Below, piece by piece: positions 3,635 through 23,907 of a stretch of DNA of 64,000 bases. Position 1 is the first letter of the stretch; each line of letters starts with the position of its first letter. The notes beneath the pieces are model-generated. The model ran no database searches and was not told the origin of the DNA. It saw only the letters and a list, made by a program, of their open reading frames with translations. The stretch spans positions 1,116,001 to 1,180,000 of the forward strand of contig NZ_CP116398.1 of NCBI RefSeq assembly GCF_029643245.1, written 5' to 3'. The position numbers were made by a program, and so were the translations under genes. This DNA is from Methylomonas sp. EFPC3 (GTDB taxonomy: Bacteria; Pseudomonadota; Gammaproteobacteria; Methylococcales; Methylomonadaceae).

Positions 3635-3635
3635 C

Positions 3636-6810: not shown

Positions 6811-6812
6811 GG

Positions 6813-8895: not shown

Positions 8896-9073
8896 GCGTT
8901 AACTTGGCAGCATCCAGCGCACCCATTAAGAACATATCCGCTTCCGCTTTTTTGAGAGTGATAGGCTCGGACCGTTTAGATTCATAACCGCACGGGCACA
9001 CAAGCTTAAAACTGACTAACAATCGGTTTCGTTTGGCCGGCGATATCGCCTCAATCAATCGCAAATCAGCCAT
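8876..9073 (-). CDS. Small phage protein with a CxC motif
   Basis: 65 residues from the ATG at 9073, which overlaps the stop of the DUF1804 gene. It has VCPCGYESKRSEP, a half zinc-ribbon, and a final HDC that could complete a metal site. Located between the terminase subunits and overlapping both. Family not recognised; role probably linked to packaging, by position only. Confidence 0.6.
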   Translation of the reverse strand: MADLRLIEAISPAKRNRLLVSFKLVCPCGYESKRSEPITLKKAEADMFLMGALDAAKLTHDCKNV

Positions 9074-9560
9074 ACCTTTTCCCCAACACCGCCCCAATCT
9101 CCTCAATGTGCGGCTGCAAGGCTCGCAGCGCTTGCGGATCGCGCTTTTGCAACAAATCGACCACGGTTTTCAGCGTATCCAGCGCCACCGATAAACCACT
9201 AAATTGCGGATTGATGCGCGAAAAGGCCTTGGCAAACTTGGCATGGGCGTCAGCCAGCTGCGACAGCACGCCGGCTTTCTCGTGGGCGGGAATGGTCGAG
9301 TTGTCCAGCTCGCGCGTCGTGGTCAACACCAACCGGGCAAAATCTTCGATCATGTTCTTGTTCAGCTCGTCGATGCCTTGCTCGCTGACGCGGTAGGCGG
9401 CCCGCGCGGTGTCCCAATCGTCGCCCCGTTCCTTGCCCAGACGCTTCCACTCGCGCGCCGTGTCGTAGCTGACATTGCAGCAAGCGGCAGCGGCCGTCAG
9501 CGCCATGCCTTCCACGTACATGCGGCGGACGTTGGCCCGCGTTTCCGGCGTGTGGGCCAT
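9066..9560 (-). CDS. Terminase small subunit, Mu gp27-like (DUF1804)
   Basis: 164 residues. The N-terminus has the typical HTH (RANVRRMYVEGMALTAAA followed by YDTAREWKRLGKERG), and the helical C-terminal half ends in QALRALQPHIEEIGAVLGKRYG. DUF1804 proteins lie directly before the large terminase in Mu-like phages and act as DNA-recognition subunits. It overlaps the next gene by 8 nt. Confidence 0.9.
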   Translation of the reverse strand: MAHTPETRANVRRMYVEGMALTAAAACCNVSYDTAREWKRLGKERGDDWDTARAAYRVSEQGIDELNKNMIEDFARLVLTTTRELDNSTIPAHEKAGVLSQLADAHAKFAKAFSRINPQFSGLSVALDTLKTVVDLLQKRDPQALRALQPHIEEIGAVLGKRYG

Positions 9561-9563
9561 GTG

Positions 9564-9893
9564 CTAGACCACTCGCTTCAAAATCTCGACCAGCCCGGCT
9601 ACCAGCGCGCCGCTGGCACCGCCACCCAAGGCGCCCAGCTTGGCCACCTTCTCGATGATGCGTTTGTCCTCGCTTTGCAGCTCGCCGATCTTGGTTTCCA
9701 CCGCATCCAACCGACCGGACAACCGATCTTCCAGACGCTCGATGCGCTTGTTGCTGGTGTCTTCCAACCGGCGCATGTCCTCGCGCAAATGCTCAATGCT
9801 GGCTAGTACTGCCGCATGCATGGCGCGGATTTCGCCGGTCAAGTGGCCAATCTGTTGGGCCAGCGCGGCTTCGTTATTGTTCTGTTCGGTCAT
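9564..9893 (-). CDS. Coiled-coil phage protein with hydrophobic C-terminus
   Basis: 109 residues: a long heptad-rich helix (about 5-80; MHAAVLASIEHLREDMRRLE, RIERLEDRLSGRLDAVE) followed by a Gly/Ala/Val-rich hydrophobic end (ALGGGASGALVAGLVEIL). Mu has a comparable coiled-coil, membrane-linked protein (gp25, DUF2730) just before the terminase genes, although there the hydrophobic part is N-terminal. A holin-like accessory role is possible but not shown. It overlaps the Rz gene. Confidence 0.7.
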   Translation of the reverse strand: MTEQNNNEAALAQQIGHLTGEIRAMHAAVLASIEHLREDMRRLEDTSNKRIERLEDRLSGRLDAVETKIGELQSEDKRIIEKVAKLGALGGGASGALVAGLVEILKRVV

Positions 9894-10371
9894 CGGGACG
9901 TCCTTCTTCGTAATCGATCAATGCGCCGAGCCGGGCTCGGCAGGTTTCGTATTGGCCTTGGGCGTTGCCGATCCAGCCGGCGACGTCGGTATCGGTGGCA
10001 ATGGCGGCACTCTCTGCAACAGATGCGCCGGCGGCTTGGGGCACGGTACGCGGGGCGCCGTTGAGCAGGCGGACAGCAGCATCGCCAAGACAAGCGCGAC
10101 CAGTAGTAACTTTAGAAACGGCACGGGTCACCTCCAGGGTGCGTAGGATTAAATCGGATTCGGTGTGCGCCAACCGATTGGACAGCGCATCGCCGCGGGC
10201 TTTCTCGTCGACAAACCGGCGGTGGTAAATTTGCGCAGATGCGGCCACAGCCTTGGCCTGGCTGGCTTCCATGATTGCAATCCGTTCGCCCATTACCGCT
10301 TCGGTCACATAGACGCCGCCGCCCAGGCCGCAGATCAGGCCGGCCAAGCCGGCTATCGCTAATGGATTCAT
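9874..10371 (-). CDS. Inner-membrane spanin subunit (Rz-like)
   Basis: 165 residues with one N-terminal transmembrane helix (AIAGLAGLICGLGGGVYV), then a helical periplasmic part (residues 30-95). This is the Rz pattern. Rz spans the periplasm with its lipoprotein partner to fuse inner and outer membranes in the last step of lysis. The call is strengthened by the complete Rz1 lipoprotein gene nested inside it in another frame. It starts with an ATGA overlap of the DUF4406 gene. Confidence 0.83.
   Translation of the reverse strand: MNPLAIAGLAGLICGLGGGVYVTEAVMGERIAIMEASQAKAVAASAQIYHRRFVDEKARGDALSNRLAHTESDLILRTLEVTRAVSKVTTGRACLGDAAVRLLNGAPRTVPQAAGASVAESAAIATDTDVAGWIGNAQGQYETCRARLGALIDYEEGRPDDRTEQ
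9918..10124 (-). CDS. Outer-membrane spanin lipoprotein (Rz1-like), nested in Rz
   Basis: 68 residues encoded wholly inside the Rz-like gene in a different frame. It has a basic start, a hydrophobic core and the lipobox LLSAC, so the mature lipoprotein starts at Cys20. It is then proline-rich (PCPKPPAHLLQRVPPLPPIP), as is typical of Rz1. Such fully nested Rz/Rz1 pairs are known from lambda-like phages and BcepMu. The protein would sit in the inner leaflet of the outer membrane. Confidence 0.87.
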   Translation of the reverse strand: MPFLKLLLVALVLAMLLSACSTAPRVPCPKPPAHLLQRVPPLPPIPTSPAGSATPKANTKPAEPGSAH

Positions 10372-10679
10372 GCGTCCTCCGCAAGAAGATCGCCCACCAT
10401 ACGGATAGGCATGGATAATTGCGTCGCCACTTCATGCTCCAGCTGGGCGCCGCGCGATTGCTCCCAATTCGGTAAAAACACGGCCATGTCGCAGGTCAAC
10501 ATCTGCCGAATGGATAGCCGCATATACTCACGCCAACTGTTGCCCTCGGGTACCGGATTCTCGGCCGGGTTTTCCACGTGGTAACCCTTGGCGCGCAGCT
10601 TTTCGGCAGTTGCGTTGAACAGCGGGTAATTGAAGTCGGCAATGCCGGACATCGGGCCGGCGAGATAAATGCGAGTCAT
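10368..10679 (-). CDS. DUF4406 protein (nucleoside deoxyribosyltransferase-like fold)
   Basis: 103 residues from the ATG at 10679 (TRIYLAGPMSGI). The first strand plus AGPMSG, a central NPVPEGNSWREY and SRGAQLEHEVATQL match DUF4406, small phage and plasmid proteins related in fold to nucleoside 2-deoxyribosyltransferases; the glutamate in QLEHEV occupies the position of the catalytic Glu. It overlaps both the endolysin gene and the Rz gene and so is part of the late lysis operon. The substrate is unknown. Confidence 0.8.
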   Translation of the reverse strand: MTRIYLAGPMSGIADFNYPLFNATAEKLRAKGYHVENPAENPVPEGNSWREYMRLSIRQMLTCDMAVFLPNWEQSRGAQLEHEVATQLSMPIRMVGDLLAEDA

Positions 10680-11329
10680 GGCGTAACCTCCCCGCCCCAA
10701 GCGGAGTAGAGAGGTTGCAGAGTAAATAGAATGCGCCGGGGATAACCCAGGTTTTCGGCGCAATGCACGGCCGCGCGGCTGGCCGATCCGCAAGCGCGGT
10801 CCACCTCCGCGCGCTGATAGCTGCCGGCGTTTTTAGCCTCGTTCAACCAATGTCCCAGGCCGCCGTTGTAACTGCGCAATGCTGCCCAATGCCGGTCGAA
10901 ATCAGAATCACCCGATACCCGTTGATACAGCCAGCGGTCATACCCCACCAAGGCACGCATCGACCAAACCGGATTAGTCGGTTGGCAATCCTCGGCTGGT
11001 AGGCGCTGCACCTGGCACCACCACACCGCCGTGGCCGGCATGAACTGTGCCATGCCCCTGGCGCCGACGCGGGACACCGCCTCCGGCCGCCAGCCGCTCT
11101 CTTGATGGATTTGCGCGGCAAACGCCGCCACCGGCGCAGCCAATCCCCATTCAGCATGGGCGATGCGAGTAAGCTCGGACCGATAAGCGATAGCGGCGCG
11201 CGGTACGATAGGTGCGGCCTGGGCCGGACCGGACAGCAAATGCACGCCCATCAATATCACCAGAATGCCGCCGAACAACGCCAGCAATTCGCGGGCGATG
11301 TCGGCCAAATGTAAGCTGCGGCGTGCCAT
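10676..11329 (-). CDS. Lytic transglycosylase endolysin (SLT family)
   Basis: 217 residues. An N-terminal hydrophobic segment (ALFGGILVILMGVHLLSG) followed by AQA looks like a signal or signal-anchor-release sequence. The SLT domain follows: catalytic Glu in IHQESGWRPEAVS, GARGMAQFMPATA, and SYNGGLGHW. It would cleave peptidoglycan after secretion. It overlaps the holin-like gene by 1 nt and the DUF4406 gene by 4 nt. Confidence 0.92.
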   Translation of the reverse strand: MARRSLHLADIARELLALFGGILVILMGVHLLSGPAQAAPIVPRAAIAYRSELTRIAHAEWGLAAPVAAFAAQIHQESGWRPEAVSRVGARGMAQFMPATAVWWCQVQRLPAEDCQPTNPVWSMRALVGYDRWLYQRVSGDSDFDRHWAALRSYNGGLGHWLNEAKNAGSYQRAEVDRACGSASRAAVHCAENLGYPRRILFTLQPLYSAWGGEVTP

Positions 11330-11670
11330 TACGCCCCCAAGCTCACGGCCAGCATCGCGGCGGCCACAATCAGAGCCCGGCGCAGCATCGCCAGGGCAAA
11401 CACCACGTGATAGTGTTTATTGACGCGAAAATCCGCATCCTCAGCCGAACACTCGGCGTGATACCGCCTGTCCGGATGATGTCGTAAATACCCATCCGGC
11501 CGCGCATACGGAAACAACGCCCGGTCCAGGTAATAACCCACCACGCCGGCCGTCGTCACCAGCGCGACCTTAAATAGCGCTACGCCGATCTGCTGCGGAT
11601 ACAGCAGCGCAATCACGGCCAACAGCAGCAGGCTTATGCCCGCCCACACAGACAATCTCGGTAATTTCAT
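11329..11670 (-). CDS. Putative phage holin (2/3-TM type)
   Basis: 113 residues: two close N-terminal transmembrane helices (VWAGISLLLLAVIALLYP; ALFKVALVTTAGVVGYYL), a polar His-rich loop, and a third helix at the C-terminus (LAMLRRALIVAAAMLAVSL). The topology and the place directly before the transglycosylase fit the putative 2/3TM holin family. It is the first gene of the leftward late operon, under the palindromic late promoter at 11722-11768. Confidence 0.82.
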   Translation of the reverse strand: MKLPRLSVWAGISLLLLAVIALLYPQQIGVALFKVALVTTAGVVGYYLDRALFPYARPDGYLRHHPDRRYHAECSAEDADFRVNKHYHVVFALAMLRRALIVAAAMLAVSLGA

Positions 11671-11721
11671 CTCAGTCTCCTGCGTTAATGACGATTCAAA
11701 AACGAATCAAATGCAGGGTGA

Positions 11722-11768
11722 AATTTACGCGCGCGCGCGAAGGCCGGTCAGGCTGGAAACGTTTCCAG
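11722..11768 (-). promoter_or_regulatory. Late promoter 1: palindrome plus -10, left arm
   Basis: CTGGAAACGTTTCCAG (11753-11768) is a perfect 16-bp palindrome. Reading leftward, exactly 25 nt separate it from the -10-like TAAATT (11722-11727), and the holin start is about 50 nt further on. No -35 box is visible, as expected for an activator-dependent promoter. The same palindrome and spacing recur at 23834, 32255 and 37278. The gap between 11671 and 11830 holds no gene. Confidence 0.75.
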
Positions 11769-11830
11769 GGTAAGCAACGGCAGGCCGGCGGCGTATCGTT
11801 CGCCGCGTCTTAACCCAACAGGAAACTCCG

Positions 11831-12331
11831 ATGACACTAACACTCAGAATCGTGCAATGGCTGCTGTACCTGCCGCTGCATTTGCTGGTCGCCGTTGCCC
11901 GCTACCCGCTGGCGCCCGTTGCCGTGGCGTCCTTTACCACAAACGACAAACGCTTTTTGCTGTTTCCATTCACCTGGCTGGAAACCATCGACAACGATCT
12001 GTCCGGCGACGACGGCTGGCGCACCGAGCATATCCGCCCCGGCAGCGACCCGCTTAGCCTCTGGAACCGCATCCGTTGGCTGTGGCGCAACGGCGGCAAC
12101 CGAGTTAACTACATGGTGCTGGGATGTCCGGACGATCCGAACTTTCGCGCTGATTGGGGCGACACGCAGGACCGCGACGCTCTCTGGATACGCGACGACG
12201 GCTATTGGATGATCAGAGGCCATATCCCGATCGGCCGCAAATACCTGTATCTTTTTGTCGGCTGGTCCTTATTCGGACCGCTCTGCGCGCGCTGTAAATT
12301 CACCTGCACCATCCGGATCAAAACCAATTAG
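11831..12331 (+). CDS. Phage membrane-associated protein (DUF7338-like)
   Basis: 166 residues with an N-terminal hydrophobic helix (WLLYLPLHLLVAVARYPLAPVAV), a central WLWRNGGNRVNYMVLG stretch, an aspartate-rich segment and a hydrophobic C-terminal stretch (YLYLFVGWSLFGPLC). I recall similar proteins (DUF7338) in myophages, function unknown. Transcribed divergently from the holin and preceded by AGGAAACTCCG. Possibly associated with virion or lysis. Confidence 0.65.
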   Translation: MTLTLRIVQWLLYLPLHLLVAVARYPLAPVAVASFTTNDKRFLLFPFTWLETIDNDLSGDDGWRTEHIRPGSDPLSLWNRIRWLWRNGGNRVNYMVLGCPDDPNFRADWGDTQDRDALWIRDDGYWMIRGHIPIGRKYLYLFVGWSLFGPLCARCKFTCTIRIKTN

Positions 12332-12343
12332 CCGGGGTAATGT

Positions 12344-13048
12344 GTGATGACGCCTGACGACTTGAAAAAAATCGCAAACAAAATCGCCAAATGTCTGGCC
12401 CTGGCGAGTAGCGACAACCCGGCGGAAGCCGAAGCCGCCAAACGCCAGGCCGATGCTTTGATGCAGAAGTACAACCTCACCAGTGGTGACGTGGCCGCGG
12501 CCAATGTCCATGACGAAACGGTCGATACCGGTGCCGCCTTTAAGTTGCCGCCCTATCTGGGCGATCTGTCCGTCATTATTGCCAAGGCCTTTGGCTGCGG
12601 CGTGGTCTGCGAGCTGGGTTTCATCAATATCCATACCCAGGTGCGTTTTTTTGGGCTGGGTATCAAGCCGGAGCTGGCCGCGTACACCTACGATGTGTTG
12701 CGCCGCCATGTGCAGCGCGACCGCGCGGCATTCAACGCCGGCCAGAGCAGCCGCCTGAAACGCGCAACGAAAATCAGGCGCGCCGACTTGTTCTGCCAGG
12801 CCTGGGTTCAACGCATCGCCAAGCAGGTCAACGAATTCGCCGGCAATGAAGCCGAGCGACAAGCCATTGCCGCCTTCAAGCAGCAAAAGTACGGAGACAT
12901 GTTAAGCGACGATACACGGCCCGGCGCATCCACCAAGCACGGCAACGACTGGCAAGCCAGCGCCGCCGGCTACCAAGCGGCGGCGGACGTGTCATTGCAT
13001 AAACCGGTGCAGGCTAAGCGCGGCGCGTTGTTGGGGGTATCGCCATGA
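12344..13048 (+). CDS. DUF2786-domain phage protein
   Basis: 234 residues. The N-terminal 45 residues (IANKIAKCLALASSDNPAEA, AKRQADALMQKYNL) are a clear DUF2786 domain; the remainder (RRHVQRDRAAFNAGQ, CQAWVQRIAKQVNEF) matches the domain usually attached to it (DUF7168). These occur in phages and plasmids with no known activity. It follows the previous gene by 12 nt, and its stop overlaps the next start. Confidence 0.82.
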   Translation: MMTPDDLKKIANKIAKCLALASSDNPAEAEAAKRQADALMQKYNLTSGDVAAANVHDETVDTGAAFKLPPYLGDLSVIIAKAFGCGVVCELGFINIHTQVRFFGLGIKPELAAYTYDVLRRHVQRDRAAFNAGQSSRLKRATKIRRADLFCQAWVQRIAKQVNEFAGNEAERQAIAAFKQQKYGDMLSDDTRPGASTKHGNDWQASAAGYQAAADVSLHKPVQAKRGALLGVSP

Positions 13049-13182
13049 AAGCCGGCGTACTGATTCGCTGGGGTAGCGTGTGGATCGGCGCGCATTGGTC
13101 GCCGTACAACAAGCGCCTGTGCATCAACGTCCTGCCGTGCGTGACTGTTTGGATTGTGTTTCCGGGAGGGAATAAACCGTGA
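13045..13182 (+). CDS. Small hypothetical protein (45 aa)
   Basis: ATGA overlap with the DUF2786 gene and a GTG overlap with the next gene argue for real translation. The product (MKAGVLIRWGSVWIGAHWSP..) is rich in Trp and Val and resembles short proteins found beside transposable-phage early genes. No function can be assigned. Confidence 0.55.
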   Translation: MKAGVLIRWGSVWIGAHWSPYNKRLCINVLPCVTVWIVFPGGNKP

Positions 13183-13322
13183 AAAACCTGTTTTTACAAC
13201 TGACGCTAAAGAATGCTCTGGTATGGCTATTCAGCTGGTGTATCTGGGGTTTGGCTCATCACGAGGTTGCTACCGAATGTAGACTTCTCGGCCGGTTTTA
13301 CGTCGGCAGCCAGGTGTTCTAA
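13179..13322 (+). CDS. Small membrane-like protein (47 aa)
   Basis: A GTG start overlaps the preceding stop (GTGA). The product has a single aromatic hydrophobic stretch (ALVWLFSWCIWGLAHH) and a polar tail. Function unknown. Supported by the overlap, not by homology. Confidence 0.5.
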   Translation: MKNLFLQLTLKNALVWLFSWCIWGLAHHEVATECRLLGRFYVGSQVF

Positions 13323-13360
13323 TGCCATCCGAATGACCTAAACCTGGGCAGCGATGAAGA

Positions 13361-13492
13361 ATGATTGAGTTTATAGCGGCCTGGTTGATTTTCGGTGGGC
13401 TGGCAATCAATACCGGCAGCCCTTTGGCATCTTTCTTTTTTGGGGTTGTCACTGGCGTGCTCTGGGCCGTTTATGCAATGGTCGTCAAATGA
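13361..13492 (+). CDS. Small membrane protein (43 aa)
   Basis: Almost entirely hydrophobic: two likely transmembrane helices (IEFIAAWLIFGGLAI and LASFFFGVVTGVLWAVYAM). Its stop overlaps the next ATG (ATGA). Function unknown; it could be an accessory holin-like or immunity peptide, but nothing shows this. Confidence 0.5.
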   Translation: MIEFIAAWLIFGGLAINTGSPLASFFFGVVTGVLWAVYAMVVK

Positions 13493-13665
13493 CCTGGCAA
13501 GCGCGAGCCGACCGCAACTACCAGCGCATCAAGGCGTTTTACGAGAGCAATGGCGGCACGAAATGGAAAGAAGTGTCCGCCGATCCGAGATTTTTTAACC
13601 GCGTATGGCGGGCGATGTTGAGATTGCCTACTGGCTATAATCCGCCATCAATCGATAGGAGATAA
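13489..13665 (+). CDS. Small hypothetical phage protein (58 aa)
   Basis: Basic, soluble product (MTWQARADRNYQRIKAFYES..) starting with an ATGA overlap. The repeated overlaps from 13045 to 13492 indicate a tight unit of very small genes. Family not recognised. Confidence 0.5.
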   Translation: MTWQARADRNYQRIKAFYESNGGTKWKEVSADPRFFNRVWRAMLRLPTGYNPPSIDRR

Positions 13666-13668
13666 AGT

Positions 13669-13950
13669 ATGTTTGCGAAATTGTTCGGCCCAGATGACGA
13701 CCAAGTTTTGGTGAAATTGGATGAGGGTGAAAATGGACCAGAAGTTAGGTTTTTTTGCGAACCGCCAGGATTGGGCGTTTGCTCGATCGCGGTTCAATTT
13801 ACAGAATCCGACAGTGCATGGAATAAAGCAAAGGCTTATTTCAACGATATAGATGAGACCAAAGCTATTGGCACAGCCCGTCGGTTTAAAAGGGAGTTAA
13901 TAGGGCAATTTAATGAATTTAAAGAAGCGTCTATATCTACTGGAGATTAG
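13669..13950 (+). CDS. Hypothetical protein (93 aa)
   Basis: Good Shine-Dalgarno (AGGAG, 8 nt before the ATG). Acidic, soluble product with alternating strands followed by a helical C-terminus (ARRFKRELIGQFNEFKE). The DNA is more AT-rich than the preceding phage genes, suggesting separate acquisition. No family recognised. Confidence 0.6.
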   Translation: MFAKLFGPDDDQVLVKLDEGENGPEVRFFCEPPGLGVCSIAVQFTESDSAWNKAKAYFNDIDETKAIGTARRFKRELIGQFNEFKEASISTGD

Positions 13951-13952
13951 TT

Positions 13953-14153
13953 TTGAATATACCGACACCAGGCACACAAGTGACGAAACAAGGTGTAACA
14001 CTCACCGTTGATTTTGTTCATAACGGCGAGGTGTATTACATGAAGCATCGCCGAAAACCAGACGGAGAACCAGATTCAGTATCGAGTGATTGGTCTCGGT
14101 TTTTAGGGTTATTCAGGGTGCCTATCTCAGTATGGGTCACGCAAGCGGGTTAA
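13953..14153 (+). CDS. Small hypothetical protein (66 aa), TTG start
   Basis: The frame starts at TTG 13953 with GGAG 7 nt upstream. The product begins NIPTPGTQVTKQGVTLTVDF and is predicted to be mostly beta-strand. It follows the 93-residue gene by 2 nt, so the two are probably translated together. Function unknown. Confidence 0.5.
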   Translation: MNIPTPGTQVTKQGVTLTVDFVHNGEVYYMKHRRKPDGEPDSVSSDWSRFLGLFRVPISVWVTQAG

Positions 14154-14178
14154 AAACGAGAGCCTAGAGCTCCATGCA

Positions 14179-14219
14179 GAGCGCCGCGAGCGCCTACACT
14201 CAGAGCGCCTCTGAGCGCC
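14179..14219 (+). repeat. Four direct GAGCGCC repeats with a small hairpin
   Basis: GAGCGCC occurs at 14179, 14188, 14203 and 14213. The third copy sits inside a small hairpin (CAGAG-CGC-CTCTG), and TTTTT follows the fourth. It lies between convergent genes and probably helps end transcription, although the distance from hairpin to T-run is not classical. Confidence 0.45.
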
Positions 14220-14234
14220 TTTTTATGGGTTAGT

Positions 14235-14558
14235 TTATGGAATTTCAGATGGAATAGGACGCCGAATACCAGGTATAAAACGGTTTCCTTTTGCAACATC
14301 CAGTCCGGAGTCATTTAATTGCGCTACGTAAATGCCCCCTGTAACTCTGACAACTATCGTGTTAGCTGTTTGCTCAAGCCAAGACAGTTCTATATAAAGT
14401 TGGTCATGACTAATCGCATTCCCAAACTCATTCAACGCAAACAGCAATAATTCTTGATTAGCCATGTAGGTTGTCTGTTGACTGAGAATTTGTAGAATCA
14501 AAAACCTAATATCAGACTGTTTAAATTCCCGGATTTTTTTCTCAGAGTCAGCGTTCAT
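14235..14558 (-). CDS. VpaChn25_0724-family phage protein (winged-helix-like)
   Basis: 107 residues. The pattern of N-terminal helices, ISHDQLYIELSWLEQTANTIVV and the ending LDVAKGNRFIPGIRRP is that of a Mu-like phage family found beside gp25-gp27 in Mu relatives. It looks like a small winged-helix protein. Here it is away from the terminase genes, at the end of the leftward repressor operon. Role unknown. Confidence 0.72.
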   Translation of the reverse strand: MNADSEKKIREFKQSDIRFLILQILSQQTTYMANQELLLFALNEFGNAISHDQLYIELSWLEQTANTIVVRVTGGIYVAQLNDSGLDVAKGNRFIPGIRRPIPSEIP

Positions 14559-14573
14559 TTCGAATTATAAAAT

Positions 14574-15227
14574 TTAACGACAAATAGACTCGCAAGGAAT
14601 CCCGTCATGGTCGCGATCCAGCCGAGAAAGGCCGCAGTCGTTCAGGTAATGCTTCGCCTCGGCGCAACTGTTCATCTGCCCGCAGGTACGTTTCGCCCCA
14701 CAATTACCACCGTCCCCAAAACCGGGTAAATCATCATCGGCTTTCGCCGTTGGCGCGGCTTTCTTGGGTTTACCTCCATGCCTGAACTCCCAGGGTGGAG
14801 TCGGTTCAGCATCCGCCCATAAGCCCACGCCAGCGGCCTTCGCAGATTCTTCCAGGGCGGCAATATTTTGATCGGTCAGATATTGCCTATAGGCCCAGGC
14901 AAAGCCACGTTTTACCTGTTCGGCATTGGCATCGACACCATTGCACTTAATGCGTCCAATCGTCCGTTTATATTTATCCGTGCCTTTGTCCTCTACGACG
15001 GCGGACTTTTTAAAACAAAGCTCGGACAATGATTGCTTGGCCTGAGTGCCAAACGCTTGCTTGGATTCAGGCGCATCAATTTCAGCCAAGCGGATTTTGA
15101 TCTGCTTTTTCTGAGCATTCAAAACCGTCAATGTGTCGCCGTCGGATATGCCGACGACGGTCCCGGTCCATTCGTTTGCGAACGCCAGCAAAGGGGTCAG
15201 GATTAACAAGGGGAATAGTTTTTTCAT
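14574..15227 (-). CDS. Exported thermonuclease (SNase) with C-terminal excalibur domain
   Basis: 217 residues: signal peptide (KKLFPLLILTPLLAFA), staphylococcal-nuclease fold (about 20-150) with GISDGDTLTV, IRLAEIDAPE and YKRTIGRIKC, then a linker and a Ca-binding excalibur motif (LDRDHDGIPCE). It should degrade nucleic acids outside the cytoplasm, most likely in the periplasm. It overlaps the upstream exported-protein gene by 4 nt and lies downstream of the repressor, so it may be expressed in the lysogen. Confidence 0.88.
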   Translation of the reverse strand: MKKLFPLLILTPLLAFANEWTGTVVGISDGDTLTVLNAQKKQIKIRLAEIDAPESKQAFGTQAKQSLSELCFKKSAVVEDKGTDKYKRTIGRIKCNGVDANAEQVKRGFAWAYRQYLTDQNIAALEESAKAAGVGLWADAEPTPPWEFRHGGKPKKAAPTAKADDDLPGFGDGGNCGAKRTCGQMNSCAEAKHYLNDCGLSRLDRDHDGIPCESICR

Positions 15228-15748
15228 TTTGATTGTTCAATAGTCGCTTTTGTAATAAGAGCAATCCATAAGCCATCATTCATGCCGCATGAAACAGTAA
15301 AATTTTTGACTGTTTTTTTCAGTGCGCCTGGATGACCTGTGGCGTATATGTCCACACATAATTTTTCAAGTTCACCGGCTTCAGAACTCGGGCCGAATAT
15401 AGTCGTTCCTACTAATGATCTGACGTTGAATAAATCTAATTCTTCACTTTTATTGTCTGATTTTGATATCACCCCTATCGCATAAGGATGACCATTTTTC
15501 TTGTCGATATTGATAGTAACTATCGCATTGGGTAGTACGTAATGCTGTAAGGTTACGAACTGCTCGTTTTCCGCCGCTTTCTCCATCTTTGACTTCGCAG
15601 GCAGCTTTTTCATGCCGTCCACTTTTGAAGCTAGAGAGTTATAGGTTTCTATTAACTGATCGGCAGATATTTTGAATGTTGGTGGATTAGCGCTTTGGCT
15701 ATCCATCGAAAAGGTAAGAATAGCGGCAGACAATGTTTTTTTGATCAT
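15224..15748 (-). CDS. Exported hypothetical protein in the repressor operon
   Basis: 174 residues from the ATG at 15748. A basic start and short hydrophobic stretch (KKTLSAAILTFSM) ending near SQSA look like a signal peptide. The mature part has no recognised domain (LVGTTIFGPSSEAGELEKLC is typical of its style). It begins 5 nt after the repressor stop and overlaps the thermonuclease gene by 4 nt, so it is very likely co-transcribed with both. Possibly a partner or chaperone for the nuclease, by position only. Confidence 0.68.
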   Translation of the reverse strand: MIKKTLSAAILTFSMDSQSANPPTFKISADQLIETYNSLASKVDGMKKLPAKSKMEKAAENEQFVTLQHYVLPNAIVTINIDKKNGHPYAIGVISKSDNKSEELDLFNVRSLVGTTIFGPSSEAGELEKLCVDIYATGHPGALKKTVKNFTVSCGMNDGLWIALITKATIEQSK

Positions 15749-15753
15749 GCTTT

Positions 15754-16116
15754 TTATCCTTCTATGGCCGGCTCTAATTTCTGTTCGGGCCATTCAATAC
15801 CATTTGAAATCCTCAAGAAGTTAAGACCGTCTAGGCCTTGTTGTGCCAATCCTTTGGTAGCCAGTGCGCGGCATTGGCGTAAGTACGCCAGTTCAATAGG
15901 TGAGCCAGCGACGTTTTCGAAGCGTTCGCCACTAATCACATACCCGACATCAACCCCTAGCATTGCCACTTTGGCCAGATAGCTTCCTTTGGGTGTAGTC
16001 CGGTTTGATTCGTATGCGTGCTGCGTTTGCTTTGTCGTACCGCCAGCCTCCGCAAATACAGGCTGCGTAAGCTTTAGACGCTCGCGCTCCTCTCTCAATC
16101 TTTCCCCGATAGTCAT
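15754..16116 (-). CDS. XRE-family phage repressor
   Basis: About 120 residues from the ATG at 16116 (MTIGERLREERERL). The HTH region spans residues 5-55 (LTQPVFAEAGGTTKQT), followed by YLAKVAMLGVDVGYVISGERF, typical of small phage repressors. Divergent from the early genes across an operator-bearing promoter, so it is the likely immunity repressor. The HTH is paralogous to the XRE protein at 16385-16711. The gene heads a leftward operon that carries two exported proteins. Confidence 0.85.
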   Translation of the reverse strand: MTIGERLREERERLKLTQPVFAEAGGTTKQTQHAYESNRTTPKGSYLAKVAMLGVDVGYVISGERFENVAGSPIELAYLRQCRALATKGLAQQGLDGLNFLRISNGIEWPEQKLEPAIEG

Positions 16117-16138
16117 AATAATCTTTCTCTTTTTGTTA

Positions 16139-16167
16139 TTGACAGGGAAAGTTTTCTTTCCCATAAT
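16139..16167 (+). promoter_or_regulatory. Early promoter with operator in its spacer
   Basis: TTGACA (16139-16144), 17-nt spacer, CATAAT (16162-16167): a near-consensus sigma70 promoter directed at the Ner-like, transposase and B genes. The spacer is almost exactly filled by GGGAAAG-tttt-CTTTCCC (16145-16162), a perfect 7-bp inverted repeat. A repressor dimer bound here would block RNA polymerase. This is a direct candidate for the lysis-lysogeny switch operator. Confidence 0.82.
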
Positions 16168-16202
16168 AAGCCATCATCAATTATCACGATGGAGCTTAGA
16201 GC

Positions 16203-16388
16203 ATGACACTTGAACAAGTCAAAACCGAGTTCGCCAATCGGGGCGAAACCTTCAGCGATTGGGCCAAGACCCATCAATTCAAATATTCAACCGTACTGGC
16301 CGTTATCAACGGCACGAATAAAGGTCGTCGGGGAGAGGCGCACCGCGTGGCGGTGGCACTCGGTCTGAAACAAGGAGAAGCCGCATGA
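16203..16388 (+). CDS. Ner-like DNA-binding protein (BcepMu gp16 family)
   Basis: 61 residues; good Shine-Dalgarno (GGAG) before the ATG. The sequence VKTEFANRGETFSDWAKTHQ with YSTVLAVINGTNKGRRGEAH is the BcepMu gp16-like phage DNA-binding family, in the place of Mu ner as first gene rightward of the switch. It would repress early transcription or the repressor promoter. Its stop overlaps the next start. Confidence 0.83.
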   Translation: MTLEQVKTEFANRGETFSDWAKTHQFKYSTVLAVINGTNKGRRGEAHRVAVALGLKQGEAA

Positions 16389-16711
16389 TTACCGATGGAA
16401 TTGTTAGAAATAGCCGGATAGGTATTGGTGTCGAAATTGGCTTGTCAACACCTCGTGATACCAAAACTGTGAATGCCGTACGGTCTCTTTCAACTGCCGT
16501 TCAGTCATCAATTGGAAGTCGGTTAAGAGAAGAAAGAAAAAGATTAGGATTTTCTCAGGCTGCTTTTGGCGGCAAGGTAGGGGTTGGCAAGCAGGCAGTA
16601 GTTAAATGGGAAGATGATCGTCGTTCTCCATGCGCTAGATACCTAGCACTTGCTGGTGATTTGGGTATGGACATTGGCTATATCGTGACAGGGGGGCGTC
16701 ATGGCCAATGA
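16385..16711 (+). CDS. Second XRE-family regulator, paralogue of the repressor
   Basis: 108 residues. About 40 residues without clear features are followed by an HTH (IGSRLREERKRLGFSQAAF, KQAVVKWEDDRRSP, LGMDIGYIVTGGR). Nearly every structural position matches the repressor at 15754-16116, so the two arose by duplication. Located in the early operon, it could act as a Cro-like antagonist at the same operator. The DNA is locally AT-rich. Confidence 0.8.
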   Translation: MITDGIVRNSRIGIGVEIGLSTPRDTKTVNAVRSLSTAVQSSIGSRLREERKRLGFSQAAFGGKVGVGKQAVVKWEDDRRSPCARYLALAGDLGMDIGYIVTGGRHGQ

Positions 16712-17762
16712 TCAATTTATAGATTTGGGTATCGGTGCTGCACCAGTTGGTGAGCTAGATATGGACTTGCCGCCAGCGCGCACCTTTGTTGACGGCGAGT
16801 TGATCAATATCGATACCGATGCGCAGTCATTAACGCCAGTAGCCAGTCAGGAACAAACTCAGCTACAGGTATGTTTACGCGATTTTGGCTTGTCCGATTT
16901 GGGCGTAAGCGAACTGATGACGATTGGTATCGAAGAGCTGAATACCAGTATGCTCAAGGCCTGCCGGGCCGGAGCGGCCTTTTGGGCGGCTCAGGAAGCG
17001 GTTAAAAATGCCGACTACGCCGGCGGCGTAGTCGGTGATTTTAAAGCATGGATTGAGAAATCCGGTTTAGTTGAAGCGCGAGTTTACGAGTGCATACGTC
17101 TCGCCAAATACTACGCTCGCCTGCCTGAAAGCCAACGCGGCAAGATGTTGAGCATCGGCAAAAAACAAGCGTTATTGCTGGCTAAGCTGCCACAAGAGGT
17201 CATAGACCGCGTTGCCGAAAACGGCACCGATGTGCTCGACGAAGCCGAAACCATGACCTACGACCAACTGCGCGATCTGCTGAAAACCGCCGAGCGGCGC
17301 AATCAGCAGCTGAACGCCGAGGTCGAGCACCGCGACGCCCTGATCAACAAGTTCAAGCAGCGCGACAACCGCGACTACGAGTTCCATTGGAAAACCCACA
17401 CCGTCCGCGAAGAGTGCTTGGCGTACCAAGCCGAATGCGAAGTGGCGTTAAACAGCCTGCAAGCGGTGTTTAACGAGCAGTTGAACGATATGGAAGTAGC
17501 CGAGAAAGAGCTGCGGATCGAGCAATTGTGGGTGACCGCCAACGTAATTGCTGCCCGCGCCGCCACGGTTATGGAGCATATCCGCCTAAATAGTTTGGTC
17601 GATCTGCCCAACACTATCACCAGCAAGCACATGCTGACCGACGACGAGGCGCAGCGCTGGCTGCTGGATTACCCGTTGATTGAGCGCAAGCACGAAGCGG
17701 CCAAAGCCAAGCGCGAAGACGCCCGGCCAAATCGCCCAGGCCGCCCCAAAAAGGACAAATAG
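16701..17762 (+). CDS. Early-region protein, DUF3102-like
   Basis: 353 residues. The central part (GAAFWAAQEAVKNADYAGGVV, FKAWIEKSGLVEARVYECIRLAKYY) resembles DUF3102/ParB-like DNA-associated proteins that sit ahead of transposase in BcepMu-type phages. It has a long helical mid-section and a basic C-terminus (RPNRPGRPKKDK, an AT-hook-like tail). It probably binds DNA and assists transposition or replication. It overlaps the XRE gene by 11 nt. Confidence 0.65.
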   Translation: MANDQFIDLGIGAAPVGELDMDLPPARTFVDGELINIDTDAQSLTPVASQEQTQLQVCLRDFGLSDLGVSELMTIGIEELNTSMLKACRAGAAFWAAQEAVKNADYAGGVVGDFKAWIEKSGLVEARVYECIRLAKYYARLPESQRGKMLSIGKKQALLLAKLPQEVIDRVAENGTDVLDEAETMTYDQLRDLLKTAERRNQQLNAEVEHRDALINKFKQRDNRDYEFHWKTHTVREECLAYQAECEVALNSLQAVFNEQLNDMEVAEKELRIEQLWVTANVIAARAATVMEHIRLNSLVDLPNTITSKHMLTDDEAQRWLLDYPLIERKHEAAKAKREDARPNRPGRPKKDK

Positions 17763-17774
17763 AGGGCATGAGCC

Positions 17775-19439
17775 ATGCGCCGCAACGCCAATCCACTCGT
17801 ACAACAGATGGCCGATAACAGCCCCGCCGTGCGCCCCACTGCCCAGGTCATCGCGCTACGCCAGCGCGACCCTTGGAAAGAGGCCAACGACAGCCAGCGC
17901 GCGGTCGCCACGGCACGGTTCGATATCGTCAATTCCATCCTGGACATGGAGCGCAACGGGTTTAGCGCCAACAAAGCCATCGAAACCTTGCTGGCCCGCG
18001 CGGAAACCGGCGCGCTGCATCCGTACCTGCAAAACGCGATGAAGACCGCCGCCAAAGCTAACCGCGCCGCGCCGACCCGCAGCGTGTTGTTCGAATGGTT
18101 GAAGGTGGTCAAGGCCGGCGGCGGTAGAGTCGATCTGTTGGAACAACACAAGGGCCGCGTCGTCACCGAGCAACCGGCCTGGTGGGGGCCGGCGCTGGAG
18201 TATTACAACCAGCCCAGCCAACCGGAAATGTCGGTGGTCTGGCGGCAACTGGCCGAGGTGGAAGGCTTTGCCTGCACCTACGACCAGGTGCGCGGCTATC
18301 TCAACAGCGTCCCAGCCATGCTCGGCCGCCACAGCCCGGCTCGCATCGGCCGCAAGCTGTACCGCCTGACCGAGAAGGCTTACATCCGCCGCTGCACCGA
18401 GCGCGCTTTGCCGGGCGACGTGTACGTTGCCGACGGTTACATGGCCGACATTTACCTGGTCAACCCCATCGACGGCAAGTTTCCTTGGCGGCCCGAGTTG
18501 ACCGTGGCGATGGATCTGCGCAGCCGCTTTATCGTCGGCTGGCGGGCCGACGAGCACGAGGGCACCACGGCCGTGCAGAACTTGTGGGCGGAAACTTTCG
18601 CCCGCTGGAACCACGTGCCCCTGTTTCTCTATGTGGATAACGGTTCCGGCCATAAAAACAAGCTGATGAGCGACGACATGACCGGCTTTTACGCCCGCCA
18701 TAACATCGAGGTGATTCACGCCATCCCCGGCAACCCGCACGGAAAGGGCTGGATCGAGCGCTTCTTCGTCGAGGTCAAGCGCGACTTTCTGAAAGCCTGG
18801 CGCCCGGCGTTTTACTGCGGCGACGACATGTGCGACGAGGCCCGCGCCGAAACCATCAAAGCCGTCAAAAGTGGCAAGTTGCAACCTCCCACCTTGATGG
18901 AGTTTGCCGAGGCATTTAACGCCTGGATCGCCCGCTACGTGCAACGTCAGCACCCGGAGAACAAGCACGTCAGCCGCGCCCAGGTGTGGGGCGAGTTGTC
19001 GCCGCTGCCGCCGCATGCCGACCTGCTGGAAATGAAGCGGCAGGCGGTGGTGCTGACCGTGCGCCGGGCCAGTATCACCCATAACAAGCGCCAATACGGC
19101 CATCCGGACCTGCATGCTTACAACCACCTGCAAGTGGTGCTGGAGTACGACCTGATGGACAACCGCGTCGCCGTCATTCGCACCCAGGACGGCCGCTGGA
19201 TCTGCGATGCGCATTTGATCAACAGCGTCGATGCCGTGGACAAGAGCCGGTTGGAAGAGCGCCGCGACAAGCGGGTGGAAGACCAGCGCAAACGCTTGCA
19301 ACGCAAGGTGGACGAACTCAACGCCCGCGCCGGCCTGGTGATCGATGCCGACGCCGTCGCCAGCAATGCGCAAACCCTGTTGGACCAAACCCCGGCGCTG
19401 CCGGAAACCATTGAGATTGATCTTTTTAGCTTTGAGTGA
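17775..19439 (+). CDS. Transposase A (MuA-like DDE recombinase)
   Basis: 554 residues. The DDE catalytic triad is visible: Asp220 (YVADGYMAD), Asp288 (LYVDNGSGHKN) and Glu328 (GKGWIERFF). An N-terminal DNA-binding region precedes it, and a beta-barrel plus coiled-coil C-terminus (about 430-520) follows. It catalyses integration and replicative transposition at the phage ends listed in this annotation. A large antisense frame over this gene is a codon-bias shadow. Confidence 0.95.
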   Translation: MRRNANPLVQQMADNSPAVRPTAQVIALRQRDPWKEANDSQRAVATARFDIVNSILDMERNGFSANKAIETLLARAETGALHPYLQNAMKTAAKANRAAPTRSVLFEWLKVVKAGGGRVDLLEQHKGRVVTEQPAWWGPALEYYNQPSQPEMSVVWRQLAEVEGFACTYDQVRGYLNSVPAMLGRHSPARIGRKLYRLTEKAYIRRCTERALPGDVYVADGYMADIYLVNPIDGKFPWRPELTVAMDLRSRFIVGWRADEHEGTTAVQNLWAETFARWNHVPLFLYVDNGSGHKNKLMSDDMTGFYARHNIEVIHAIPGNPHGKGWIERFFVEVKRDFLKAWRPAFYCGDDMCDEARAETIKAVKSGKLQPPTLMEFAEAFNAWIARYVQRQHPENKHVSRAQVWGELSPLPPHADLLEMKRQAVVLTVRRASITHNKRQYGHPDLHAYNHLQVVLEYDLMDNRVAVIRTQDGRWICDAHLINSVDAVDKSRLEERRDKRVEDQRKRLQRKVDELNARAGLVIDADAVASNAQTLLDQTPALPETIEIDLFSFE

Positions 19440-19449
19440 GGCAAACCCT

Positions 19450-19776
19450 ATGAGCACATTTACCGATGCATTTTTAGTCAACCGACGGCTAGCCATTCAG
19501 TTGGGCGAATCGATGGTATGGGCGGTTGTCAGAATGGACATTGATAGCCGAGAGTTGCTATCGCTGGATTATCAGAGTGAGTTTCACGAGCAGCAGCGCA
19601 CGGCGTACCAGCCGGTCAGCAAGCCACACGTTAAAGGCGCTATTGAATTGTTTTTGGGGAAATTAGATCGCGCGGTGCTGATGAAAACCGAGGCCAAGAA
19701 CCTGGACCAGTTGCGGTATGACACCCGCGAATTCCTGGACATTCTGCGCAACGCGGACGGCAAGGTGGTTTTATGA
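19450..19776 (+). CDS. Small protein between transposase A and ATPase B
   Basis: 108 residues from the ATG at 19450; its stop overlaps the start of B by 4 nt. The C-terminus (KNLDQLRYDTREFLDILR) is helical. BcepMu-like phages often have a small unknown gene here. Probably tied to transposition by position, but no domain is recognised. Confidence 0.65.
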   Translation: MSTFTDAFLVNRRLAIQLGESMVWAVVRMDIDSRELLSLDYQSEFHEQQRTAYQPVSKPHVKGAIELFLGKLDRAVLMKTEAKNLDQLRYDTREFLDILRNADGKVVL

Positions 19777-20711
19777 GCAACTACCCCCAACACTACACGC
19801 CGGACGATATCGCCCTGATCGAACAGATCAAGGCTTGGCTGGCCGAGCGCGATTACAAACAAGCCGCGCTGGCTAGGCTGGCCCGCGTCTCGGCCAGCAC
19901 GCTGAGCCAAATCCTGGGCGGCAGTTATGCCACCAGCCCCAGCAAGATGCTGGTCAACGTCGCCAACGCCATGAAACACGCCGACGACACCGCCAGCGAT
20001 ACCGTGGCGCCGGTGGAAACCAGCGTGTTCCGCCTGGCGTTGACCGCCTGCCAAATGGCCCGTCGCTACCGTAACTTCGCGGTGCTGAGCGCCTTTGTCG
20101 GCACCGGCAAGACCTTTGCCGTCAAGCATTACCAGCGCACCACACCCAACACTTACTTAATCGAGGCCACGCCGACCATGACCGTGCAAAGCCTGATCAA
20201 GCTGCTGGCCCGCACCGTGGCCGGCTACGAGGGCAAAGGCAGCATCGACGACAAATTCCAGTCGGTCATCAACAGCCTGCAGAACACCGACAGCCTGTTG
20301 ATCGTCGACGAGGCCGACACGCTGACGCCGCACGTCCTCCACACGCTGCGCCGCCTGCGTGACCTGGCCAACATCGGCATCGTACTGGCCGGCACCGAAC
20401 ACCTGACCGGCCTGATCAGACCAGCCCACGGCCAGTTCGACCAAATCCGCAGCCGCACCGGCTTCTGGCCGGAAACCGTCAAGGGCATCACCGCCGACGA
20501 TGCCGCCGCATTGACCCAGGCCGCGTTCGGCGACGAGGACGTCAGCGACGACGTGGTCAAGCGCCTGTATGCCTACAGCAAGGGCAGCGCTCGGATGCTG
20601 ATCGAGGGCTTGGTAGCCGCCATCCAGCAATTCCGCGGCAACCGCGAGTTGAACGTGGCCCTGGTGGATGCGGTGGCCAAACAGGCTTTGTGCCTGCAAT
20701 CGGTAGCGTAG
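19773..20711 (+). CDS. Transposition target-choice ATPase B (MuB-like, AAA)
   Basis: 312 residues. An N-terminal HTH (residues 25-65: YKQAALARLARVSASTLSQI) precedes an AAA ATPase with Walker A GTGKT (110-114) and Walker B LLIVDEAD (175-182). MuB binds DNA non-specifically in its ATP form, picks target sites and activates A. It overlaps the previous gene by 4 nt. Confidence 0.94.
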   Translation: MSNYPQHYTPDDIALIEQIKAWLAERDYKQAALARLARVSASTLSQILGGSYATSPSKMLVNVANAMKHADDTASDTVAPVETSVFRLALTACQMARRYRNFAVLSAFVGTGKTFAVKHYQRTTPNTYLIEATPTMTVQSLIKLLARTVAGYEGKGSIDDKFQSVINSLQNTDSLLIVDEADTLTPHVLHTLRRLRDLANIGIVLAGTEHLTGLIRPAHGQFDQIRSRTGFWPETVKGITADDAAALTQAAFGDEDVSDDVVKRLYAYSKGSARMLIEGLVAAIQQFRGNRELNVALVDAVAKQALCLQSVA

Positions 20712-20719
20712 GAGGCTCC

Positions 20720-20911
20720 GTGGCTATTTACCTAATCAAAATCCGCGACACCGAACGCGGCGTGGAAATCGAAGGCACCGAAGTCGCCAACCCCGGCGAG
20801 CGCAACGCGCCGTCGGCGGTACTGGGCGAAGCAATGGTCGCCAACGCCACCCGCTACCTGGAACAACACGGTCGGCATATCACGCTGGCCGAGACGGTTA
20901 CCCGCCATTGA
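20720..20911 (+). CDS. Small early protein (63 aa)
   Basis: The GTG at 20720 has an ideal GGAGG Shine-Dalgarno 5 nt upstream, favouring it over an ATG at 20690 inside B. The product begins VAIYLIKIRDTERGVEIEG and is a compact alpha/beta protein. Unknown function. Confidence 0.6.
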   Translation: MAIYLIKIRDTERGVEIEGTEVANPGERNAPSAVLGEAMVANATRYLEQHGRHITLAETVTRH

Positions 20912-20918
20912 GGCCGCC

Positions 20919-21074
20919 ATGAACAACTATCTCGTCAATCGATTTCTGCGCGGCGACTACGCCGGCAAAACCCAGCGCCAGGCCAACCAGCTCAAGCGGT
21001 TGGTGGCCCGGCAATGCCACAAACCGCACAACCGGCTGCGCGTGCGCGTGCAATCGGACTGGGCTTTCTACTAG
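20919..21074 (+). CDS. Small basic early protein (51 aa)
   Basis: Very basic product (MNNYLVNRFLRGDYAGKTQR, then RLVARQCHKPHNRLRVRV), consistent with nucleic-acid binding. It begins 8 nt after the preceding stop and is followed 11 nt later by the next gene, within the early operon. No family recognised. Confidence 0.5.
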   Translation: MNNYLVNRFLRGDYAGKTQRQANQLKRLVARQCHKPHNRLRVRVQSDWAFY

Positions 21075-21084
21075 GAGAGACGCC

Positions 21085-21327
21085 ATGCCTTTGGTTAACC
21101 AAATGATCGAACAACGCCGTCGCCGCCAGCAAATTGAACGCGACCAACGCCTGTCCGGGCACGACCGGATCATCGACGACCTGCTCGGCAAAGAGGGCCG
21201 TTTGCGCCACAAGCTCACCGATACCCGCTGGATCGCTGCCATCGGCTGGGCCGCGTTTGCCTACCTGGCGTATTGCCATTGGGCCGCGCCGATCATGGTG
21301 GTCGCCGGCCTGGAGTGCCGCCTGTGA
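21085..21327 (+). CDS. Small early membrane protein (80 aa)
   Basis: Shine-Dalgarno AGGAGAGA before the ATG. Basic helical N-terminus (QMIEQRRRRQQIERDQR) and a C-terminal transmembrane helix (WIAAIGWAAFAYLAYCHWAAPIMV). Its stop overlaps the next gene's GTG. Function unknown. Confidence 0.6.
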   Translation: MPLVNQMIEQRRRRQQIERDQRLSGHDRIIDDLLGKEGRLRHKLTDTRWIAAIGWAAFAYLAYCHWAAPIMVVAGLECRL

Positions 21328-21878
21328 GCAACGCCTGCGCCATCCCGTGCCCGTACTGCGGCAAGGACGTCGATATCGTCCAGGCGCTGGAAGTGGCGGC
21401 CGGCAACGAATGGACCGGATTGCTCAACGGCTTACCGATCAGCCTGGTCGGCGCGCTGTTGCGCTACCTGGAGCTGTTCAAGCCGCTGAAGCAGGAGCTG
21501 CGCTGGTCCAGGCGTTTGGCGCTGACCAAAGAACTGGTGCCGCTGATCAAGGACGCGCAGATCAAGCGCAACGGCATCGCCTATTCGGCGCCGGCGGCGA
21601 TTTGGGAAGCGGAGATGATGAAACTGGTCGTCAACCGTCCCGAATCGTTAGTGCTGCCCCTCAAATCCAACGGCTATCTGCTGAGCATGATCGCCGGCCG
21701 CGGCGAGCGGGCGGCCGCCAAGCTGGAGCAGGACAAAATCGAGCAACAGCGCAACCGCAGCAACGTTGGCGGTGCGCCGGTGTCGGTGGCCAGTCTCGCC
21801 GCCCAGGCACAAACCAAAACCAGGAGCAAGCCGCCGGCCAACTGGAAAGGCGGGGTGGCGCCGCCGGACACATCGTAG
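21324..21878 (+). CDS. Early-region hypothetical protein with N-terminal CxxC
   Basis: 184 residues from a GTG that overlaps the preceding stop. It starts with CAIPCPYCGKD (a zinc-ribbon half), followed by a helical region and a Gln/Arg-rich tail. Related proteins occur in the early regions of Mu-like phages without assigned function. Its TAG stop codon is supplied by the first bases of the 78-bp repeat element at 21874-21951. Confidence 0.62.
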   Translation: MSNACAIPCPYCGKDVDIVQALEVAAGNEWTGLLNGLPISLVGALLRYLELFKPLKQELRWSRRLALTKELVPLIKDAQIKRNGIAYSAPAAIWEAEMMKLVVNRPESLVLPLKSNGYLLSMIAGRGERAAAKLEQDKIEQQRNRSNVGGAPVSVASLAAQAQTKTRSKPPANWKGGVAPPDTS

Positions 21879-21951
21879 GGTGGGTAGAGCAAAGCGAAAC
21901 CCAGCAAAACGCAATCAACGCTGGGTTGCACGTTGTTTAACCCAGCCTACG
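21874..21951. repeat. 78-bp MITE-like repeat with terminal inverted repeats
   Basis: CGTAGGGTGGGT at the left and ACCCAGCCTACG at the right match as inverted repeats in 11 of 12 positions, with inner complementary AACCCAGC/GCTGGGTT segments. This style of element is common in gammaproteobacterial chromosomes and here lies inside the prophage early region, ending one gene and preceding gam. No coding content. Confidence 0.65.
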
Positions 21952-21975
21952 TATCATGAAACATAGGAGCCACAC

Positions 21976-22485: not shown

Positions 22486-22658
22486 TGGACGCCCGTATCC
22501 GCCAACTCCGCGATCGCGCCCGGCATCTGGCCGATGCCGCGCGCAACGCGGACAGCATGTTCGATTACAACCGGTTGATGTCCGAATCGGCCAAAGCCGA
22601 AGACGAGGCCGACGAGCTGGAAGCTCAGCGCTACGATCGGGAGGCCGTTCATGGCTGA
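22485..22658 (+). CDS. Small charged early protein (57 aa)
   Basis: The ATG overlaps the last base of the gam stop codon (TAATG). The product is highly charged and helical (MDARIRQLRDRARHLADAAR, EDEADELEAQRY). It overlaps the gemA start. Unknown function. Confidence 0.6.
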   Translation: MDARIRQLRDRARHLADAARNADSMFDYNRLMSESAKAEDEADELEAQRYDREAVHG

Positions 22659-23097: not shown

Positions 23098-23101
23098 TCT
23101 C

Positions 23102-23506: not shown

Positions 23507-23511
23507 CCGAT

Positions 23512-23880: not shown

Positions 23881-23907
23881 GGCCTCAACTGATTTACCGA
23901 GGCCGTC

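What the first reader, a model, noticed from the sequence alone, without database searches (positions are those of the whole stretch)
14235..16116. Repressor operon carrying an exported thermonuclease and an exported partner
The phage repressor is followed, within 5 nt and then with a 4-nt overlap, by two signal-peptide proteins, one a thermonuclease with an excalibur Ca-binding tail. Genes expressed with the repressor are expressed in the lysogen. A periplasmic nuclease made by a prophage could cut incoming phage or plasmid DNA, a possible superinfection-exclusion system. The partner has no known domain.
Basis: inference. Interest (0 to 1): 0.68.

Follow-up and report, generated by a model that had tools for sequence, protein, structure and literature searches.

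The report
Prophage repressor operon with exported nuclease
A virus lying dormant in a methane-eating bacterium makes, from the same operon as the repressor that keeps it dormant, a DNA-cutting enzyme that is exported from the cytoplasm; a sister virus in the same species has an unrelated, probable exported nuclease in exactly that place, which suggests that dormant viruses use such enzymes to destroy foreign DNA entering the cell.

Summary
The operon is real: repressor, 5-nt gap, 174-aa partner with a weak signal peptide, 4-nt overlap, exported thermonuclease (SNase plus Excalibur tail). It lies in a BcepMu-like prophage (window about 2381-41776); a same-species genome has the empty site with a 5-bp duplication.

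Comparison goes beyond the finding. Of 60 phage SNase clusters, 37 have a repressor within 2 kb upstream on the same strand, against 13.6% of other ORFs in the same loci. The gene between is not conserved but is usually secreted, lipoprotein or membrane; the window's partner has no relative found. The same-species genome holds a sister prophage, 80-96% identical where it aligns, whose immunity block is exchanged: repressor, membrane protein (4-nt overlap), exported HNH-like nuclease. That order recurs in four other loci.

Two unrelated exported nucleases in one lysogenic slot suggest that the activity is selected. Most likely it is a lysogen-expressed periplasmic DNA-entry barrier (superinfection exclusion, perhaps also blocking transformation). 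Expression, activity and exclusion are untested, and the HNH assignment rests on weak profile hits. Among transposase-anchored relatives only 3 of 10 carry a nuclease: recurrent cargo, not core.

The parts
15754..16116 (-). XRE-type prophage repressor, first gene of the operon, divergent from a BcepMu gp16-like regulator (16203-16388, +)
   Evidence: Pfam HTH_31 8.2e-06, HTH_3 7.3e-05; PHROG regulators; gp16-like neighbour TIGR04111 1.4e-23
15224..15748 (-). Partner, 174 aa, weak signal peptide, no family; 39% GC against 57% for the prophage
   Evidence: No hit in Pfam, PHROGs, NCBIfam, PADLOC; no relative in phages, viral contigs, plasmids or 311 genomes of the order; GC
14574..15227 (-). Exported thermonuclease: signal peptide, SNase domain, C-terminal Excalibur domain
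   Evidence: PF00565 3.5e-22, PF05901 2e-10; D29, D31, T32, R46, D51, E54, R88 invariant in 12 phage SNases; PDB thermonucleases 5.5e-15
14235..14558 (-). VpaChn25_0724 family phage protein, 15 nt downstream of the SNase, possibly in the same transcript
   Evidence: NCBIfam NF050184 1.2e-20; phrog_436 4.5e-21
16116..16203 (.). Divergent control region between repressor and early genes; a TTGACA-17-CATAAT match on the plus strand (16139-16167) and a weaker one on the minus strand (16209-16180)
   Evidence: Consensus scan; the total number of matches in the region equals chance, so only suggestive
2381..41776 (.). BcepMu-like prophage that carries the operon, bounded by a 5-bp duplication ATCAT
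   Evidence: Empty site in same-species genome G007, C76

Best explanation
A lysogeny-expressed DNA-entry barrier (superinfection exclusion by an exported nuclease). Repressor, partner and nuclease are transcribed together, so the nuclease is made while the prophage is dormant. The SNase leaves by the Sec pathway and works in the periplasm, where disulfides and the calcium-binding Excalibur tail would stabilise it; there it cuts naked DNA, such as phage genomes that are being injected, stalled or misdirected. The partner probably acts at the envelope, delaying or diverting the DNA or placing the nuclease. Shown by sequence: operon layout, domains, catalytic residues, SNase signal peptide, recurrent repressor linkage, replacement by an HNH-like exported protein. 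Inferred: expression in the lysogen, enzyme activity, location, DNA target, any role of the partner.
For: Operon spacing. 37 of 60 phage SNase clusters have a same-strand repressor within 2 kb upstream, against 84 of 617 other ORFs in the same loci (Fisher 1.2e-15; ORFs are not fully independent). Slot genes are mostly secreted, lipoprotein or membrane proteins. The sister prophage has repressor, TM protein, exported HNH-like nuclease in the same place; same order in L254, L256, L264, L265. Lysis genes are not in this operon: opposite-strand genes 11831-14153 lie between. Precedents: Ltp, exported, in the lysogeny module, blocks injection (PMC3952083); SNIPE, a membrane nuclease that cuts DNA during injection (PMC13190303).
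Against: No expression, activity or exclusion data. Injected DNA is normally shielded by the tail or an injection channel, so how a soluble periplasmic nuclease reaches it is unclear. Most close relatives lack a nuclease in the slot (3 of 10 carry one). The HNH assignment rests on a motif and weak profile hits. The partner's export is uncertain.
Confidence: 0.5

Rival explanations
1. The exported nuclease mainly blocks natural transformation, so that the prophage is not replaced by prophage-free DNA from relatives.
For: Nucleases with signal peptides on Campylobacter elements CJIE1, CJIE2 and CJIE4 block natural transformation (PMC4372405, citing Gaasbeek 2009, 2010). The host has a ComEC-type protein. 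Repressor-linked SNases also occur in Moraxella and Legionella loci, genera with competent members (my own knowledge).
Against: Competence of this host is untested, and the ComEC family also rings in E. coli. Why the gene should be swapped together with the immunity repressor is less obvious.
Confidence: 0.25
2. Lysogenic conversion for the host: scavenging of extracellular DNA for phosphate or carbon, or remodelling of biofilm DNA.
For: Extracellular DNases have such roles in other bacteria (PMC4372405). The host chromosome has another SNase with a signal-like N terminus (L002).
Against: The host already has its own SNase. Coupling to the repressor and exchange of the whole immunity block fit a phage-competition role better.
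Confidence: 0.12
3. A late function: degrading host DNA or reducing viscosity at lysis.
For: In Curvibacter phage TJ1 the SNase lies just before holin and transglycosylase.
Against: Here the SNase is in the repressor operon and separated from the lysis genes by 2.3 kb of opposite-strand genes. In TJ1 and other phages it also follows the repressor.
Confidence: 0.06
4. Neutral or decaying cargo in a hypervariable slot, without a function of its own.
For: The slot is very variable and most BcepMu-like relatives lack a nuclease.
Against: Catalytic residues are invariant across 12 diverse phage SNases; exported nucleases of two families recur there.
Confidence: 0.05

Closest known systems
Ltp of Streptococcus thermophilus phage TP-J34 (superinfection-exclusion lipoprotein; PMC3952083)
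   Same: Exported protein, encoded in the lysogeny module near the repressor, transcribed in the prophage state
   Different: A lipoprotein that blocks injection; not a nuclease; Gram-positive host; no sequence relation found
SNIPE (PMC13190303)
   Same: A nuclease placed at the cell envelope that meets phage DNA at entry
   Different: N-terminal TM, DUF4041 and GIY-YIG nuclease facing the cytoplasm; here a soluble exported SNase with Excalibur
Nucleases of Campylobacter elements CJIE1, CJIE2, CJIE4 (PMC4372405)
   Same: Element-encoded nucleases with a signal peptide that limit DNA entry (transformation)
   Different: Our protein is SNase plus Excalibur; the repressor-operon position was not checked in Campylobacter
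Exported SNases of Curvibacter phage TJ1, Moraxella phage Mcat8, Microcystis phage Mae-JY22, and of many conjugative plasmids
   Same: Homologous SNase domain; the three phages share the repressor-linked layout
   Different: Two plasmid copies looked at are not beside a repressor, and most plasmid hits cover only about 60% of the query, the SNase part; TJ1 and Mae-JY22 lack the Excalibur tail

Membership tests
Staphylococcal nuclease (SNase) family | SNase domain over the curated cut-off | tested here: met
   PF00565 79.3 bits, cut-off 21; PDB thermonucleases 5.5e-15
Staphylococcal nuclease (SNase) family | Catalytic and calcium-binding residues of the fold | tested here: met
   D31, R46, D51, E54, R88 invariant in 12 sequences, aligned with 5isr; correspondence to D21, R35, D40, E43, R87 of staphylococcal nuclease from my own knowledge
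Staphylococcal nuclease (SNase) family | Calcium-dependent nuclease activity | not testable with these tools
   Needs an enzyme assay
Superinfection exclusion proteins | Encoded with the lysogeny genes | tested here: met
   Operon with the repressor; recurrent
Superinfection exclusion proteins | Envelope or periplasmic location | tested here: inconclusive
   SNase signal peptide clear by eye, partner's weak; no predictor or fractionation
Superinfection exclusion proteins | Blocks infection by incoming phage | not testable with these tools
   Needs plating tests
[quoted passage not shown]
   Only SNase and Excalibur found in Pfam
BcepMu-like transposable phages | Mu-type transposase, gp16-like regulator, 5-bp target duplication | tested here: met
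   phrog_310 7.1e-100; TIGR04111 1.4e-23; ATCAT duplication against the empty site
HNH nucleases (sister-prophage protein L215:7284-7775) | HNH motif recognised by family models | tested here: inconclusive
   Conserved DHI..LACGG...NMQWQ...KAKD; several HNH PHROGs at 0.002-0.09 on the same stretch; PDB Cas8f-HNH 0.02; no Pfam HNH model

The most novel reading that the evidence does not exclude
A modular, undescribed class of superinfection exclusion: temperate phages pair an interchangeable envelope protein, which stalls or diverts incoming DNA, with an interchangeable exported nuclease (SNase or HNH type) that destroys it, both driven from the repressor operon and exchanged together with immunity.
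Probability: 0.3. Interest if true: 0.8.

Novelty: new variant of a known kind. Interest (0 to 1): 0.6.

Why it matters
Relatives of this SNase are very common on plasmids (at least 5000 records, 4363 of them conjugative) and recur in phages, yet I found no assigned role: a review of superinfection exclusion does not mention nucleases, and no paper in the held library joins 'thermonuclease' with 'superinfection exclusion'. Repressor coupling, and replacement by an unrelated exported nuclease-like protein in a sister prophage, give a concrete and testable reason for such genes: a barrier to foreign DNA run by the resident prophage.

Tried and rejected
Relatives of the partner: none in phages, viral contigs, plasmids or 311 genomes of the order. 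AlphaFold of the partner from its single sequence: pLDDT 43, unusable, so no fold search. Distant homology of the partner to slot genes of L005, L275 and L113: L275 gave Z 3.6, but unrelated ORFs scored as high in a control, so rejected. A fixed repressor-partner-SNase trio: rejected, the middle gene varies. Similarity among 14 slot genes: one clear pair (L041-L148) and one borderline pair (L003-L019, Z 4.4); later searches show small families. SNIPE membership: rejected. Repressor detection used models built from the loci themselves and missed at least one (L114, seen by eye), so the linkage counts are probably lower bounds.

Full report
OBSERVATION. The minus-strand operon is as described: XRE repressor 16116-15754; partner 15748-15224 after 5 nt; SNase-Excalibur 15227-14574 overlapping the partner by 4 nt; and a VpaChn25_0724 family phage gene 14558-14235 after 15 nt. 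The partner start has a Shine-Dalgarno-like AGAAGG and the SNase start none obvious, which suggests translational coupling. The SNase signal peptide is clear by eye, the partner's weak. All eight Cys of the SNase lie in the mature part, and the pair at 71 and 95 is kept in 11 of 12 aligned relatives, consistent with an oxidising compartment. The partner has 39% GC against 57% for the prophage, which points to recent acquisition (inference).

WHERE IT LIES. The prophage is BcepMu-like: Mu-type transposase, gp16-like regulator, Mu-like protease, holin and transglycosylase. The same-species genome G007 has the uninterrupted site: window 1-2380 and 41777 onward meet there and share 5 bp (ATCAT), so the prophage is about 2381-41776.

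THE SNASE IS REPRESSOR-LINKED IN MANY PHAGES. Viral contigs hold relatives at 48-74% identity in the first search and more distant ones in a second. Among the ten closest the order is repressor, variable gene or none, SNase. Clustering viral contigs, three named phages and the window at 90% SNase identity, 37 of 60 clusters with enough upstream sequence have a repressor within 2 kb on the same strand: 8 directly upstream, 29 with a slot between. For other ORFs in the same loci the figure is 84 of 617 (Fisher p 1.2e-15; ORFs in one locus are not independent). In loci from bacterial genomes it is 11 of 80, some of them prophages, so the layout belongs to phages rather than to SNases in general. 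Moraxella phage Mcat8, Curvibacter phage TJ1 and Microcystis phage Mae-JY22 share it. Catalytic residues are invariant.

THE PARTNER IS A SLOT. Genes between repressor and SNase are mostly unrelated to each other, and most carry a signal peptide, a lipobox or membrane helices. Some do not, for example the BRCT protein of L108. The window's partner has no relative found. A few slot proteins form small families, such as zinc-ribbon TM proteins with a tRNA_anti-like domain directly before the SNase in L151. Between L003 and L005 the SNase and the genes after it are 95-99% identical, while repressor plus slot gene are replaced.

A NATURAL EXPERIMENT. G007 carries a sister prophage at another site. 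The stretches that align are 80-96% identical to ours, but the block around window 13347-17074 is exchanged. In its place are a repressor (L215:6346-6777), a single-TM protein overlapping it by 4 nt (6774-7271, phrog_5882) and an exported HNH-like protein (7284-7775). G007 has no close copy of our SNase (best 45% identity, elsewhere), and our genome lacks the HNH-like protein. That family conserves DHI..LACGG..D.P.NMQWQ...KAKD. Several HNH PHROGs match that stretch weakly, the PDB profile search points to HNH domains at E 0.02, and a phage homologue is annotated 'hnhc'; no Pfam HNH model matches. I call it HNH-like, not proven. The same order (repressor, envelope protein, exported HNH-like protein) occurs in L265, L254, L256 and L264; in L266 a repressor precedes it with no clear gene between; five other viral loci showed no repressor close upstream.

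HOW COMMON. Anchoring on the transposase instead of the nuclease, 3 of 10 relatives with a readable operon (window, G007, G003) carry an exported nuclease. The others carry other genes after the repressor, many of them membrane or secreted. So this is a lysogenic cargo slot in which exported nucleases recur, not a fixed phage function.

MECHANISM. Best supported is a barrier to DNA entering the lysogen: nuclease in the periplasm, partner at the envelope. Precedents are Ltp (exported, in the lysogeny module, blocks injection; PMC3952083) and SNIPE (cuts phage DNA at injection; PMC13190303). Blocking of transformation has direct precedent in Campylobacter elements (PMC4372405) and cannot be separated by sequence; the ComEC-type protein here is no proof of competence. 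A lysis role is unlikely, because the lysis genes lie beyond 2.3 kb of opposite-strand genes. Expression, activity, location and exclusion are all unshown.

NOVELTY. Repressor-linked exported exclusion proteins, entry-site nucleases and transformation-blocking element nucleases are each known. I did not find their combination described: one repressor operon with two unrelated exported nuclease types exchanged in one slot (open-licence papers only). I rate it a new variant of a known kind.

Noticed in passing
window 49867-51809 (+): Two-gene retron-type defence locus outside the prophage: effector (PADLOC NDT_II-A 4.7e-83) and reverse transcriptase (RT_II-A 4.8e-122). Window about 49588-51906 is missing from the matching stretch of the same-species genome G007, so it looks like an island.
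   Followed up: partly
L264:1583-1810; relatives in L071, L077, L109, L112, L135, L220, L260: A small secreted Cys-rich protein (CSGKKGGVSHC..G.FICNDGT.S.SK..C, no Pfam) lies beside an exported SNase or HNH-like gene in 7 of 8 loci. It also follows a CI repressor, without a nuclease, in an E. coli P2-like prophage-plasmid, and has relatives in 19 Moraxella phages and Haemophilus phage S2.
   Followed up: partly
L108:4344-4973 and L280:845-1519: A BRCT-domain protein recurs in repressor operons: between repressor and SNase in L108, and after a zinc-ribbon TM slot protein in L280.
   Followed up: no
window 40921-41688 (+): D12-class DNA adenine methyltransferase at the right end of the prophage (PF02086 1.1e-29; PADLOC MTase_II), with no restriction partner looked for.
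   Followed up: no
window 3013-8895 (-) and 23908-40637 (+): Structural genes appear split: packaging and portal-type genes on the minus strand at the left, Mu-like protease and tail-type genes on the plus strand at the right, with regulation and early genes between.
   Followed up: no
L284 (Methylobacter sp. YRD-M1 plasmid NZ_CP091425.1): An SNase-Excalibur relative lies directly after the His-Xaa-Ser system maturase genes hxsB and hxsC.
   Followed up: no
L215:8050-8607, L011:8896-9423, L264:2324-2863: A similar-looking protein with membrane helices lies downstream of the exported nuclease gene in several of these phages; no Pfam hit for the L215 copy.
   Followed up: no
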